Source of the DNA: Trichostrongylus colubriformis
Lineage: Eukaryota; Nematoda; Chromadorea; Rhabditida; Trichostrongylidae
NCBI GenBank assembly: GCA_963978905.1
Contig: OZ022257.1
Coordinates: 38,884,203 to 38,948,202, forward strand
DNA length: 64,000 nt
Direction: 5' to 3'
Made by a program: the position numbers and the translations under genes. Shown here piece after piece: positions 10,290-59,120 of this stretch; position 1 is the stretch's first letter; the number at the start of each line of letters is the position of its first letter. The notes under the pieces are model-generated. The model was not told where the DNA came from, searched no databases, and was given only the letters and a program-made list of their open reading frames with translations.

Positions 10290-11520
10290 TTATCTCGGTG
10301 CGAGCGTGCGTGTATCAAGTTTGATAAAATACGTTGCATGCTTCATCGTTAAATGAATAAAGTGTGTTAGTGACGATGGCAAGCGCAGACCTAGCGGGAA
10401 GAAAACAAGTGCGTAGTGTGCGAGAGGAATGGATGCAGTGGGCGGTAAACTTTGGCTAGATGCGTAATGTGCGATGATCAATTGTGAAATGAACGGTGAA
10501 AAATAAACGATAGTAAGGTGCACAGCGGGTAGTATGCTATGACAAAACACAAAGAGCAGCGTTGGATAAAAGTTGCGGTGAGCGTTAAGTAAGGAAAAGG
10601 TAGGTAAATAAGCGGTAAGCAGTTGCGAGATACGCAACGCGCCATGAAAAACGACAAATGCGTATGAAGCAGCGAGTAATGAGAAAGCGCTTGATAGACA
10701 ATAAATAACGTCTGAGATGCCCTGGGCAATGATCCATGAAAGGGTGCGCTACAGACAAGTAAGTAGTATTGAATTGTGCAATAGCAATTAGTAAGGAAGA
10801 GTGCGCAATAAACAATAAGGAATATGGAAGTACGTTTTAAGCACTAAGGGACGAAGAGTGTGCAATAGACCACAAGTGATGACGAAACGCGGGATGAGCA
10901 TTTAATAATGACAAGATGCGCGTTGCGCTATAAGCAGTGAGCATTGAGAAAGGTTTGCAATGTGCGATAAGCAGTAATGAAATACGCAGTGGGTAATAGG
11001 CACGCAGTAAGCGCTAAGTAATAGAAAAGTACGCAGGGAATAATGCGCTATAAGCAGTGAGCATTGAGAAAGGTTTGCAATGTGCGATAAACAGTAATGA
11101 AATGCGCAGTGGGTAATAGGCACGCAGTAAGCGCTAAGTAATAGAAAAGTACGCAGGGAATAATACGAAGTATTGAAGCTCTTAGTTAACTTATACTTAC
11201 TTACTTATATTTAAGCTCTTATTTGTGCGGTCGACGTTAAGCGATGATGGTGTGGCAAAAGAACAAGCATGAGAGCGTGCGTAAAGGGCAACAAACAATG
11301 CTAAAATACGTGATGGATAATGAACAGTAATGAAAATGCACACTGAGTAATAAGCGAAGGGAAAGTACGATGTAAAAAAGATACAGCGGCAAATGCGTTA
11401 TGATTGTTAGCGATAACAAAAGTAATGGTGAGAAATACGCCATCAGTGATAAGTGAACAGAACGCGCTATGTGAAAAAACTGCGACAAATGCGTTATAAA
11501 TAATAACTATAACAAGTAGT
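10290..11520. repeat. Degenerate minisatellite of GCGATAAGCAGTAATGA-like words
   Basis: About 1.2 kb of irregular repetition of short phrases such as AATGCGCAGTGGGTAATAGG, GCGATAAGCAGTAATGA and GAGCATTGAGAAAGG. Stops are rare on the minus strand, so several apparent proteins rich in CLSHIANLSQC and SLLIAHYSLRT appear; these are translation of the repeat and not genes. Confidence 0.8.
10925..11164. repeat. 120-bp tandem duplication (two copies)
   Basis: 10925-11044 and 11045-11164 are the same 120-bp unit with two substitutions that I can see (at 10971/11091 and 10984/11104). This is a recent duplication in an older, degenerate array. Confidence 0.95.
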
Positions 11521-34003: not shown

Positions 34004-34062
34004 ATATAATGTTTTCATATCCAACTTCTCTCATCGTGGAACCTCGGCATAGTTCGTTATTC

Positions 34063-34935
34063 TTGTTTTATAATGCTTCTGCCACGAGGTTTTCAGGTGG
34101 AACGTTTATTTCGGCCAACGTTTCGACCTTTCGTCGTCTTCAAAGGCCTAATGGCTCAGGGCTTAAGAAATGCACACTATTCCACGAAACGCCTCATCCC
34201 CTCTAGCATTTCTGACATCGTGTCAAAACCACCCGCAAAAACCCAGATGCCTGACAAAACAGTGACCCTCGAAGTCTGGACATCATTGCGAGTAGTGTTG
34301 TCAGTGTGGCGGTGTCAAAACAGTGACCCTTGAAGACTGGACATACATAGGCGAAGCAGGGAGAATATTATAAGTGCGAATTAAAACAGCGCAGTAATGT
34401 GTTGACACCGTTAGGGAAACACCGACTTGAATGGCATAACGGCAGATTTTGATATCAAGTGCACGATATTGGCCCATGAGACAGAAATTTCCTCTAGAAA
34501 AGCGCTGGAAGCATTCTGAATTTTGGCTAGAAGTTCTAGAATGAACAATAGAAATTAGTGTGTGTCAATAACAAGTGACCTCATGCCATATATGCATCAT
34601 TGCGAGTTGCTGTGATAAGCAAATGTGCATGTCCTTACGAGGACAACAAGTAACATCCATTCGTTACTAATGTGCTAACCGAGTGTAACTTTGCTGCACT
34701 TTTGCGGTGGAATTCAAGGTGAGTCTAACTTTCAGACATCTGGGTTTTTGCGGGTGGTTTTGAAACGATGTCAGAAATGCTAGAGGGGATGAGGCGTTTG
34801 GTGGGATAGTGTGCATTTCTTAGGCCCTGAGCCATGTTTAGGCCTTTGAAGACGACGAAAAGTCGAAACGTTAGCCGAAATAAATGTTCCACCTGAAAAC
34901 CTCGTGGCAGAGGCTTAAAAAACAAGTATAATGTT
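34063..34935. mobile_element. Inverted pair of Penelope-like 3' tails
   Basis: Left arm (34072-34260) reads, on the minus strand, GAAGACGACGAAAGG, TCGAAACGTTGGCCGAAATA, CCACCTGAAAACCTCGTGGC. The right arm (34735-34920) holds the same sequence on the plus strand. About 470 bp separates them. Tails with GAAGACGA...TCGAAACGTTGGC followed by an AATAAA-like word are typical, in my reading, of Penelope-like or similar retroelements. No reverse transcriptase or GIY-YIG motif is present. Confidence 0.6.
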
Positions 34936-35448
34936 TTGATTAATTGCTGGTTTGCTCAGTTTGTCGACTAAACCAACCACTTCGCCAGCCTGAAAATCGG
35001 TCCCATTATGACCGACAAAGAAATTCAGCACAAAAACAATTCTTCCGAATGTCATATGACATGCTGCAGAAACTCATGATTTTGTAAGAAAAATTTTCGT
35101 TTGAAAAAAAACGAAACTACTCATGGAGTAACCCAATAAATATTGCTCGTTTCTGGCCGTTTCACCTTTCTTTTACTGCTATACAAAAGTTAATGCCTCG
35201 ATTTCCATGTTCCACAGTCGGTCAGATTTGCCGTTTTCGCTTTCCTCAGTAGCACTCCACAACGTACATGTCAAGACTGGCCAAGCGTGTTTCGGAGAGA
35301 AACCCAACTCCTCGCTTTGAGCTCGCGGACGGATTCGCGACAGCTATTTCTCCCTCATTATGGGGCCCATTCCCCTAATTAAATGCAACTCACCTCATTG
35401 AGCCAACCGATTTCAACTCCCAGCTGCTGATCAACGGAATTGGTACTA

Positions 35449-36125
35449 TTAGGTTGGCAACTAAGTAATTGCGGATTTTTAAATACTGCTTTTTCCCTCA
35501 AGACTGCTTTCCACAAAATTTCTTCTGTACATATATATGTAGTACAAGTCCACACGCATCTATAAGTATTGTTGTCTTCCATCTCCCGGATAACCCTTTT
35601 CGGCAAAATAAAAATATCAAAAGTCACCTCATTTTCAATTCCAATCTTTTTCTTTGAATGGCGTTAGACAGGGAAAGGGAAAGGTGATAATCCGATGGAG
35701 AAAGATCAGAACTGTATAAGGCAGCAATTTTTATCCAAGCTCGAGAATTTTTTGAAAAAAAATTTAAAATTTTTTTACCACTATTGGAAAAAATGACTCG
35801 CCAAAAAATTCTCGAGCTTGGATAAAAATTGCTGCCCCATCTACCTTATAGCCCTGATCCTGCTCCATCGGATTATCACCTTTTCCTTTCCCTGTCTAAC
35901 GACATTCAAAGAAAAATCTTTTTATAATATTTGTATTGAAAATGAGGTTGACCGTTGACATGTTTAATTTGCCGAAAAGGGTTATCCGGGAGATGGAAGA
36001 CAATAATACCTATAGATGCGTGTGGAATTATACTACATGAGTATGTACAGAAGAGATTGCTGGAAAGCAGTTTGGAGGGAAAAAGCAGTATTTAAAAATC
36101 CGCAATTACTTAGTTGCCAACCTAA
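35449..36125. mobile_element. Palindromic mariner: two head-to-head transposase C-termini with TIRs and TA duplication
   Basis: TA (35447-35448), then TTAGGTTGGCAACTAAGTAA at the left; the exact inverse ending at 36125, then TA (36126-36127). The two halves are near reverse complements over roughly 320 bp each. The right half encodes on the plus strand KILELG, PYSPDPAPSDYHLFLSLS and NDIQRK; the left half encodes on the minus strand DLSPSDYHLSLSLSNAIQRK. This is the mariner region with the third catalytic Asp. Neither half has an N-terminal domain, so it cannot make transposase but could be moved by one that recognises the ends. Confidence 0.9.
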
Positions 36126-36160
36126 TAAATCCTTTGCAAATACGTAGCACAGAACCACAT

Positions 36161-36600
36161 CCTCAAAGGAATGGTTCACGAAAAAATGAGTTTTTTTGCT
36201 ACCCATATGTTTATGTTGTATATGCCTAATAAGGGCCGCATGCAATGTTCCACGCGAAAAAGTGAGAATTCGGCGGAGTCACTGCTCCCCAAATTCTCGG
36301 CCGAGTGGGCGGAGCCTCCGAGTGAGGGCCCCGTCCTGCCATCCGACGCGGTTGGAAATGTAGAGTGGTACTGTTTACGTAACTTCCTGTTCCTACAATG
36401 CATCTCCGATCGCGGCAAACGACGGGATGGGCACTTGCTTGGAGGCCCCGCCCATCGGGCCGAGAATTTGGGGAGCTTTATCTGAGACGAATTCTCACTT
36501 TTCCGCGTGAGACTTTGCATGCGGCCTTTATTAGACAAATACAACATCAGTATATGGGTAACAGAAAATCTCATTTTTCTGTGGACGATTCCTTTGAAGG
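36161..36600. mobile_element. Palindromic MITE (ATGAGTTTTTTTGCTACCCA arms), copy 1
   Basis: Left CCTCAAAGGAATGGTTCACG and AAAAAATGAG, right CTCATTTTTCTGTGGACGAT and TCCTTTGAAGG. Arms of about 110 bp (GCATGCAATGTTCC against AAACTTTGCATGC). The core has CCCCGTCCTGCCATCCGAC against CGACGGGATGGGC. Further copies lie at 45128-45490 and 52930-53200. Confidence 0.85.
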
Positions 36601-43940: not shown

Positions 43941-44035
43941 TGTTTGAAGTGGCTCATCTAAGAAGGCTAGCACCGCTGCAGCGACGGCAACCGTCGCTGT
44001 AGCGGTGTGAGCCTTCTAGATGCGCCACTTCAAAC
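43941..44035. repeat. 95-bp near-perfect hairpin
   Basis: TGTTTGAAGTGGCTCATCTA...GCAGCGACGG faces CCGTCGCTGT...TCTAGATGCGCCACTTCAAA with a 3-nt tip (CAA) and few mismatches over about 45 bp. Ends are TGTTTGAAG and CTTCAAACA. Probably a tiny palindromic transposable element; if transcribed it would form a stable hairpin RNA. Confidence 0.93.
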
Positions 44036-44413
44036 AAAGTATCCCGCCGATTAGTCATTGAGATCAAAATTCCATTTCAACTCGCTAGGAGACACATTTT
44101 TGTATTTCTGGTTGCTCATGTCAAAATTGCAAAGGGAGTTGAAACCACTCCCTTCACTGTTTGGGATCGCAGAGGCACTGGAAAGCGCATTTGGTCTCTG
44201 GCGGTTAAATGTCAACCTCTCAGTGGTCTTGGGTAGCGCGCTCAGCGGTTAAAAAACCGGCTAGCAAGTGAAAAATCAAAAAAAAACCGCCCAAAAAGCT
44301 CAAACTCAAGATGTGCTCAGTGTGTCCACATCCGCTATTGTGTAGTCTATCTGCAAGAGGACAGACAAGAGAGATGCGTGTCATTTGGACAGAAAATTCG
44401 TGTAGCGGCACTC

Positions 44414-49055: not shown

Positions 49056-49295
49056 GGCTCCACAGCGATTTCCGCAGGCATTGGAAAGGTCTACTATAAT
49101 TGTCATCTCGTTAGTGCTGCATGGCGCACATCCAAGAGGGTGCTGCAGTTAGTAAAGTCACGGAATCTTCAGCTGTTATTTGATTATAGTATTAGGTGTG
49201 TGCAGAATAAATGGCCGACGGACCACTTTTTTTCCAAACGCCATAACTTCGCTCAGACGCAACTTTATTGTCGAAATAATATCTATACAACCTTT

Positions 49296-49565
49296 TCAAT
49301 GATCTCGTAAAGAAAATATGCAATCATAATAAAATTCTGGATTGCGAAAATTAATAGAGTCAACGATGGCATTTTCATCATGCATAGTATCGGCGAATTT
49401 TTTCTGAGGCAGGTTTGCATCGAGAACCTGGAAAAAGTGGTAATCCGTCAGAGATAGGTTTGGGGAATAAGGTGGGTGAAGGAGAGTCTCTATGCCTAAC
49501 TGCATCAGTTTCTGCTGGGTGACTTGCGAAGCGTGGGGTTTTGCGTTGTTTTGCGCACTAAGCAA
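49296..49565 (-). pseudogene. Mariner transposase C-terminal fragment, left arm
   Basis: Minus strand: AQNNAKPHASQVTQQKLMQL, then HPPYSPNLSLTDYHFFQVLD, then ANLPQKKFADTMHDENAIV, then NFRNPEFYYDCIF. This covers the mariner region of the second and third catalytic Asp; the second is Asn here (QNNAKPH instead of QDNAxPH) and the third region reads YSPN where YSPD is expected. Both changes should abolish catalysis. No N-terminal half is present. Confidence 0.85.
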
Positions 49566-49820
49566 AAACTGATGCAGTCATGCATCGAGATCTCCCTCCC
49601 CCCCCCCCCCTTATTCCTAACGGATTACCACTTTTTCCGGGTTTTCAATGCAAACCTGCGTTAGAAAAAATTCGCCGATACTGTGCACGGTAAAAATGCC
49701 GTTCTTGTCTTCATTAATTCTCGCAATCCAGAATTTGATCGTGATGGCATATTTTCTTCACCAGATCGTTCTTCAAATCCTGTAGATTCGAATGGTTTTT
49801 ATTCCGACATATAAAGTGTC
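49562..49820 (+). pseudogene. Mariner transposase C-terminal fragment, right arm
   Basis: Plus strand: after a 12-base C run the frame reads TDYHFFRVFNANLR, a stop, then KKFADTVHGKNAV, INSRNPEFDRDGIF and ends at TAA. It aligns with the left arm (same KLMQ start at AAAAACTGATGCAG, about 49564) and keeps a little more of the C-terminus. The YSPxL segment is lost in the C run. Confidence 0.82.
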
Positions 49821-49879
49821 TGAGCGAAGTTATGGCCAGTTATGTTTTGGCCATTTATTCTGCAAACACCTAATACATG

Positions 49880-58872: not shown

Positions 58873-59120
58873 GACAATGTGAGAGTTCCAAAGTTTATTC
58901 CAAAAGACTCAAAACAGCTTTCACAAAACCGGTTGTAAAAAGTGGTTGCAAAAGCGATTTGAGCCTTATAGGCAAGCTTGCGGCGCCTAGCGCCTTTATC
59001 AAGCCTGAAAATGTGCAAATTAGACGTTACTTATAGAGTAGTCTGTACTACTCTTTGCAACCGGTTTTGTGAGAGCTGTTTTGAGTCTTTTGGAGTAAAC
59101 TTTGGAAGTCTCACATTGTC
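58873..59120. mobile_element. 248-bp palindromic MITE
   Basis: GACAATGTGAGAGTTCCAAA...CACAAAACCGGTTG (58873-58935) is the near-perfect reverse complement of CAACCGGTTTTGTGAGAGCT...CTCACATTGTC (59057-59120). Arms about 63 bp. Confidence 0.92.

What the first reader, a model, noticed from the sequence alone, without database searches (positions are those of the whole stretch)
49192..49873. A second, unrelated mariner family with the same inverted-duplicate architecture
Different TIR (TTAGGTGTGTGCAGAATAAA) and different transposase, yet again two C-terminal pieces head to head, starting close to the second-to-third catalytic acid interval, with TA duplications. Two families independently reaching the same form in 14 kb suggests a general mechanism, such as aberrant repair or template switching during transposition, or selection for foldback transcripts that could act as dsRNA against the parent transposase.
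Basis: partly seen in the sequence, partly recalled or inferred. Interest (0 to 1): 0.82.

Follow-up and report, generated by a model that had tools for sequence, protein, structure and literature searches.

The report
Palindromic nematode mariner, double 3' end
This is a short parasitic DNA element made of two copies of the tail end of a mariner jumping gene joined head to head; it is one of many similar copies in this genome that spread from a single accident, and it belongs to a kind already known from insects.

Summary
Window 49192-49873 (682 bp, flanked by TA) is a nearly complete palindrome: two 3' ends of a DD34D mariner, head to head round a 34-nt loop. Its junction 18-mer (up to 2 mismatches) occurs 1,300 times in the genome, control 5. 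All 40 scored copies are palindromic; the 30 fetched share one loop. So one accident was spread by transposition, in at least two waves. Four non-palindromic relatives of the parent were found. The window's other palindrome (35449-36125) has a different loop, hence a separate founder: "same form twice" holds, on two events. The kind is known: Rhodnius Rpmar49 and Rpmar17 replace the 5' part by the 3' part; Drosophila lineages do the reverse. I found no support for selected double-stranded RNA. I favour a repair error, then amplification as a short element with two usable, perhaps strong, ends. Unexpected: subfamilies of the other palindrome differ mainly in the outer ~30 bp, at both ends together; one carries another mariner group's 3' repeat twice.

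The parts
49190..49191 (.). TA target-site duplication, left
   Evidence: sequence; TA at both ends in 20 of 30 fetched copies by my count by eye from the listing
49192..49216 (+). left terminal inverted repeat (TTAGGTGTGTGCAGAATAAATGGCC), a 3' end of the parent mariner
49192..49521 (-). left arm: 3' end of mariner (transposase C-terminus, 3' UTR, TIR), read on the minus strand
49299..49577 (-). open frame over the left arm (93 aa; includes the loop and a few bases of the right arm): region from the second catalytic residue to beyond the third
   Evidence: (DDE_3, E 0.0017, below the curated cut-off)
49522..49555 (.). 34-nt loop; all but the last ~8 nt (49548-49555) continue the left arm colinear with the parent; homologous loop in all 30 aligned copies (small indels in a few)
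49543..49560 (-). founder junction (place of the 18-mer searched genome-wide); this copy has 2 mismatches to it
49556..49873 (+). right arm: second copy of the mariner 3' end, frames broken; lacks about 12 nt near the TIR that the left arm has
49849..49873 (-). right terminal inverted repeat (inverse of TTAGGTGTTTGCAGAATAAATGGCC)
49874..49875 (.). TA target-site duplication, right
35447..36127 (.). the other palindromic mariner (family A, subfamily A1), TA to TA; element 35449-36125; TIRs TTAGGTTGGCAACTAAGTAATTGCGG; separate founder

Best explanation
The element is a non-autonomous, nearly fully palindromic mariner derivative. Inferred: a break inside a full-length mariner was mis-repaired so that its last ~340 nt was joined head to head to a second copy of the same 3' end (fold-back synthesis, sister-chromatid joining, or joining of two nearby copies). 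Shown: two mariner 3' ends facing out, TA flanks, one shared junction, over a thousand junction matches, and different flanks in the copies listed, so it was moved by transposition. Inferred: the transposase came in trans from related full-length mariners, and success came from small size (~700 bp) and from two ends that both bind transposase well. Duplication of whichever end is stronger in a given family would also reconcile the 3'-3' elements here and in Rhodnius with the 5'-5' elements in Drosophila.
For: 1,300 matches to the junction 18-mer, control 5. 40 of 40 scored copies match on both strands. 30 of 30 aligned copies share the same asymmetric loop; mean identity to consensus 93.8%. 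A younger subfamily (TIR TTAGGTC..., 12 copies, 94.1-98.4% to its consensus) has the same junction. Four non-palindromic copies (L065, L074, L075, L076) show the parent layout; L074 runs from TIR to TIR with the three catalytic motifs and DD34D spacing (counted by hand) and one in-frame stop. Parent 5' half: 42 hits at 40 places, 33 with at least 350 bp, none on opposite strands within 3 kb, so no 5'-5' palindrome of this family among them. Passages read: Mos1 with two right ends 26 times more active in vitro than the natural pair, two left ends 50 times less; Mboumar-9 excision is highest with two left ends (PMC4505599); two 3' ITRs about 20 times (PMC3419177).
Against: End strength was not measured for any mariner of this genome. 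In this family the first ~26 nt of the 5' and 3' TIRs look alike in L074 and L075, so a stronger 3' end is unproven. Size alone could explain the success. Drosophila rearranged lineages duplicate the 5' end (PMC4161770), so 3'-3' is not universal. The junction shows no clear inverted microhomology against the four parents, so fold-back priming is not demonstrated. The consensus arms differ at 23 of 334 compared positions (a few flanking bases are in that count), which also fits two different source copies. The parent count may be capped: only 40 of 740 candidates were scored. None of the four parents fetched is intact, so the transposase source is not shown.
Confidence: 0.7

Rival explanations
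1. Foldback transcripts were selected: the palindrome makes double-stranded RNA that silences the parent transposase, as proposed for Mu killer in maize.
For: The RNA of either strand folds into one long hairpin (-367.9 and -370.6 kcal/mol; z -29 and -25 against only 20 shuffles each). Mu killer is an inverted duplication of a transposase gene with two copies of one TIR (abstract and passages of PMC3440606).
Against: Arms of one copy are no better matched than arms of different copies (0.1581 against 0.1585). The consensus arms are only 83-90% identical to the four parents. About 1,300 dispersed copies look like a spreading element, not a silencing locus. No transcript or small-RNA data could be examined.
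Confidence: 0.07
2. The founder arose by deletion between two separate, oppositely oriented mariner copies instead of by fold-back of one copy.
For: The arms differ at 23 of 334 consensus positions and by a 12-nt indel. Arm-to-arm identity is 0.93 in the older wave and 0.88 in the younger; parent copies are 0.845-0.921 identical to each other. In the younger subfamily one arm keeps parent-like bases where the other differs. The Rhodnius authors proposed deletion between neighbouring copies (PMC4678618 section 13).
Against: Both arms share changes absent from the four parents examined (for example CTGAC for CCAAC), and the two arms group together with 0.846 support in a small tree. This fits one source copy followed by divergence, though arm-to-arm conversion could also spread such changes. 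Only four parents were compared.
Confidence: 0.35
3. Amplification owes everything to small size; the 3'-3' layout is incidental.
For: Both founders gave elements of about 680-715 bp. Rearranged and deleted mariner lineages in Drosophila and Rhodnius have uniform sizes (PMC4161770 section 15; PMC4678618 section 13). Non-palindromic short derivatives also exist here (L061:679-1254, 576 bp).
Against: Subfamily A1 of the other family carries at both ends a repeat closer to the 3' than to the 5' TIR of a full-length mariner group, as selection on end type would predict; but the original TIR of that family is not known.
Confidence: 0.3
4. Assembly or sequencing artefact (false hairpin).
For: Palindromes can be made by chimeric reads (general knowledge).
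Against: Copies on six large contigs with the same loop, their own mutations, and different neighbours; 1,300 junction matches.
Confidence: 0.01

Closest known systems
Rpmar49 and Rpmar17, rearranged mariner lineages of Rhodnius prolixus (PMC4678618; section 13 read in full; passages)
   Same: non-autonomous mariners whose 5' part is replaced by the 3' part (with transposase homology for Rpmar49), so both ends are 3' ends; Rpmar49: 13 homogeneous copies from one progenitor
   Different: the long inverted repeat is 221 of 970 bp (Rpmar49) or 57 of 922 (Rpmar17), not a full palindrome; 13 and 140 clean independent copies; Rpmar17 breakpoints vary and the authors doubt that its copies derive from each other by transposition; other mariner subfamilies; host is a bug
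Rearranged mariner MITEs of Drosophila, Dromar7, 11, 28 and 36 (PMC4161770; sections 6 and 15 read; passages)
   Same: internal deletion with one end duplicated in inverse orientation, long TIRs, founder-specific patterns, uniform size
   Different: always the 5' end that is duplicated; MITE sublineages there reach about 300 copies; authors call the origin of the rearrangement elusive
Pseudo-Mos1 3T3 and RR donor plasmids (PMC3419177 and PMC4505599, passages read)
   Same: mariner with two identical 3' (right) ends
   Different: laboratory construct around a marker gene, no palindrome
Mu killer of maize (PMC3440606, abstract and passages)
   Same: inverted duplication of part of a transposase gene with two copies of one element end
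   Different: a single rearranged MuDR locus that silences MuDR; not a spreading family
Tc4 of C. elegans, foldback elements and MADE1 (recalled; Tc4 only as a search term; start of an abstract on Made1)
   Same: palindromic or nearly palindromic non-autonomous DNA transposons
   Different: other families, or no transposase-coding arms; not compared here by sequence

Membership tests
mariner (DD34D) derivative | TA target site and TIRs of about 28-30 bp | tested here: met
mariner (DD34D) derivative | DD34D transposase in the parent | tested here: met
   L074 translation: VDEKW, QDNAKPH, SPTDY with 34 residues between second and third D (counted by hand); left arm matches SETMAR and Mos1 chains
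mariner (DD34D) derivative | active transposase that moves this element | not testable with these tools
   the four fetched parents are broken or truncated; intact relatives were not sought further
MITE / non-autonomous amplified lineage | many copies from one founder, short, no intact transposase | tested here: met
3'-3' rearranged mariner lineage (as Rpmar49) | 5' part replaced by inverted 3' part, with transposase homology in both arms | tested here: met
3'-3' rearranged mariner lineage (as Rpmar49) | shared junction, amplified after the rearrangement | tested here: met
dsRNA-producing silencing locus (as Mu killer) | transcribed through both arms, small RNAs, parent silenced | not testable with these tools
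   no RNA data; arm matching within copies not maintained

The most novel reading that the evidence does not exclude
Palindromic mariners behave as free-living shells that can exchange their terminal repeats. Family A subfamilies with 93-95% identical bodies (gaps ignored) carry different outer ~28 bp (56-68% identical) at both ends together, one set being closest to the 3' repeat of a different mariner group. Because the arms can overwrite each other (as the 130-nt identical inner stretch of family B suggests), a new end gained on one side can be copied to the other, so a palindrome can switch to a new transposase and keep two strong ends after its own parent dies out. Orientation of palindromes (3'-3' or 5'-5') would then read out which end is strong in each mariner family.
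Probability: 0.3. Interest if true: 0.65.

Novelty: new member of a known kind. Interest (0 to 1): 0.42.

Why it matters
How MITEs are born is open; the Drosophila authors call the origin of end-duplication rearrangements elusive. This genome offers two large palindromic families: for one, surviving parents, a readable junction, two waves of different age and an arm-to-arm conversion trace; for the other, a visible exchange of terminal repeats. It gives a testable idea that joins separate reports: duplication of the stronger transposase-binding end makes a superior parasite of the parent, 3'-3' in some mariners and 5'-5' in others.

Tried and rejected
dsRNA selection: tested indirectly by within- against between-copy arm distance, no support. 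Ongoing arm-to-arm conversion in the copies: not supported by the same numbers; a past conversion tract in the family B progenitor remains likely. A first alignment mixed orientations, because loci are given on the genome's plus strand; it suggested loop inversion, which vanished after re-orienting 15 of 30 loci, so the arm identities and distances are void, and the query typed came partly from that consensus. Fold-back priming by a GGGTG/CACCC repeat in the parent: dropped, since the parents read CTGTTGCAGG or CTGTAGCAGG there. One common founder of both families: rejected on loop and body sequence, though both junctions fall between or at the second and third catalytic acids. A rule that palindromes are always 3'-3': rejected by the Drosophila lineages. 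N-terminal arms: no palindrome with N-terminal mariner arms was seen in the 297 kb scanned, but those loci were picked by other criteria. Plasmid collection: no match. Full-length parent of family A: not found, not searched by itself. Counting A1 ends, the parental junction and copies like L036 by genome search: not completed.

Full report
What is there. The interval holds a 682-bp element between two TA dinucleotides. Its ends are TTAGGTGTGTGCAGAATAAATGGCC and the inverse of a near-identical sequence. The whole element aligns to its own reverse complement (49189-49876, 73%). Left arm 49192-49521, loop 49522-49555, right arm 49556-49873. The left arm, read on the minus strand, encodes the stretch from the second catalytic residue towards the C-terminus of a mariner transposase; the best solved-structure matches are SETMAR (E 2.4e-15) and Mos1 (E 2.2e-5). 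Pfam gives only DDE_3, below its cut-off. The right arm encodes the same region in broken frames.

It is a family. The window's assembly (331 Mb, 52 contigs; the six contigs that hold the copies are 39-64 Mb) was searched with the element: 1,625 candidates, 40 scored, all 40 matching on both strands over most or all of the length, 84-88% identical apart from the query itself. Thirty of the 40 were fetched. They share one asymmetric loop and, re-oriented, are on average 93.8% identical to their consensus (window copy 91.9%). TA stands at both ends in 20 of 30 by my count; the flanks listed there differ. An 18-mer across the junction, with up to 2 mismatches, occurs 1,300 times (636 + 664); the pattern read backwards occurs 5 times.

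Parents. A protein search found 150 scored hits among 19,391 candidates. I fetched 12 of these 150, chosen among the best and those with long open frames; 11 were palindromic and one (L065) not. I fetched 13 more: five chosen because the match began at residue 3 as in L065, of which three (L074, L075, L076) were not palindromic and two were; and eight of the other hit class, all palindromic, one of them (L082) with part of an arm deleted. These choices were not random. L074 runs from TIR to TIR, about 1.28 kb, with VDEKW, QDNAKPH and SPTDY motifs, 34 residues between the second and third D, and one in-frame stop. The parent's 5' half (L065:740-1310) gave 42 hits at 40 places, 33 of them with at least 350 bp; none lay on opposite strands within 3 kb. 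Only 40 of 740 candidates were scored, so this is a lower bound, though the last ones were short partial matches.

The junction. Parents read CTGTTGCAGGATAACGCAAAACC (CTGTAGCAGG in L076); the founder reads GGGTG-CGCAAAAC-AACGCAAAACC on the same strand. The long arm is colinear with the parent to just after the second catalytic codon; the short arm begins at CACCC, in the codons for V-T-R-Q-K. The 8 nt between may be a copy of the neighbouring CGCAAAAC (a templated insertion) or a diverged remnant of the parent. No clear inverted microhomology is seen. Papers on inverted duplications describe fold-back loops and junction insertions (passages of PMC3907307 and PMC10622511); the yeast study reports a 5-bp repeat with a 35-bp spacer. 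This is analogy only.

History of the arms. The two consensus arms differ at 23 of 334 compared positions (at least one of these lies in the few flanking bases included) plus a 12-nt indel. The differences leave one 130-nt stretch untouched (20,000 random placements, p = 0.0003). In the younger subfamily (12 copies, 94.1-98.4% to their consensus, TIR TTAGGTC) the same arm is parent-like at several bases just where this stretch ends. The simplest reading is that one arm overwrote the other there in the progenitor of the older wave. Today the two arms of one copy (mean distance 0.1581, n=30) are as far apart as arms of different copies (0.1585, n=870), so there is no sign of ongoing matching.

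The other family. Window 35449-36125 is a palindrome of another mariner body. Of 1,938 candidates 40 were scored; all 40 match on both strands, 95-96% identical apart from the query; 8 fetched copies are 97.6-98.7% identical to their consensus. Its loop differs from that of the first family, so the founder was separate. L036:628-1300 and L023:425-1116 have the same loop and 93-95% identical interiors (gaps ignored), but their outer 28 positions differ at 32-44% at each end (Fisher p 3e-11 to 2.5e-10 for the four comparisons with window and L006 copies; L036 against L023 themselves p 0.04, window against L006 p 0.26). The four ends of the window and L006 copies are identical and match the consensus 3' TIR of 19 full-length mariners of another group at 31 of 33 positions and its 5' TIR at 28 of 33; in 18 of the 19 the 3' end is the closer, in one (L060) the 5' end. 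The 19 are those of 30 loci (L031-L060) with both ends found; I call the group bandit-like after the hookworm mariner of PMC2041818 (passages), a label not tested by alignment. The boundary of the second TIR type with the body occurs 1,569 times, control 0. Among the 100 places listed (exact matches only), eight form four opposite-strand pairs about 610-620 bp apart, that is, palindromes with this end on both sides (my reading of the list). The count for the first TIR type did not complete. The parent of family A was not found, so which TIR is original is unknown.

How it most likely works. A repair error made each founder; transposase supplied in trans moved it; small size and two usable ends made it win. 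Laboratory work shows that mariner ends are unequal: Mos1 with two right (3') ends is about 20-26 times more active in vitro than the natural element, with two left ends 50 times less, while Mboumar-9 excision is highest with two left ends (passages of PMC3419177 and PMC4505599). If each mariner favours duplication of its own stronger end, the 3'-3' elements here and in Rhodnius and the 5'-5' elements in Drosophila are one phenomenon. This is inference: in family B the first ~26 nt of both TIRs look alike, and no end was tested.

What is known. Rhodnius Rpmar49 and Rpmar17 and seven Drosophila sublineages are the same kind of thing. New here, as far as my nine paper searches show (open-licence papers only, most seen as listings), are nearly full palindromes in more than a thousand copies and the exchange of both ends. 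I did not find a paper that links end strength to the direction of the duplication, but no search was aimed at exactly that, so this is weak.

Noticed in passing
window 35447-36127; L006:2193-2869; L036:628-1300; L023:425-1116: Palindromic family A subfamilies have near-identical bodies but two different sets of terminal repeats at both ends; one set is closest to the 3' TIR of a group of full-length mariners (L031-L060).
   Followed up: partly
L061:679-1254; L035:163-1069; L010:2490-3381: Non-palindromic short mariner derivatives with perfect or near-perfect TIRs and matches only to the later part of the transposase.
   Followed up: no
C7:9597197, C8:18869951, C8:28172588, C3:33908195, C8:318755, C1:37862598: Six places start their match to the parent within a few bases of one position (query 398-401), as if another deletion derivative with a shared breakpoint had spread.
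   Followed up: no
window 34057-34931, 58873-59120, 43941-44036, 36163-36597; L012:605-1089; L032:2292-2640; L040:2266-2501: Other palindromic or long-inverted-repeat stretches without a match to the mariner proteins tried (43941-44036 was seen only); palindromic elements seem common in this genome.
   Followed up: no
L006:1491-2202 and 2193-2869: A family B palindrome and a family A palindrome lie side by side, sharing a TA.
   Followed up: no
window 10924-11163: Tandem pair of 120-nt repeats, 98% identical.
   Followed up: no
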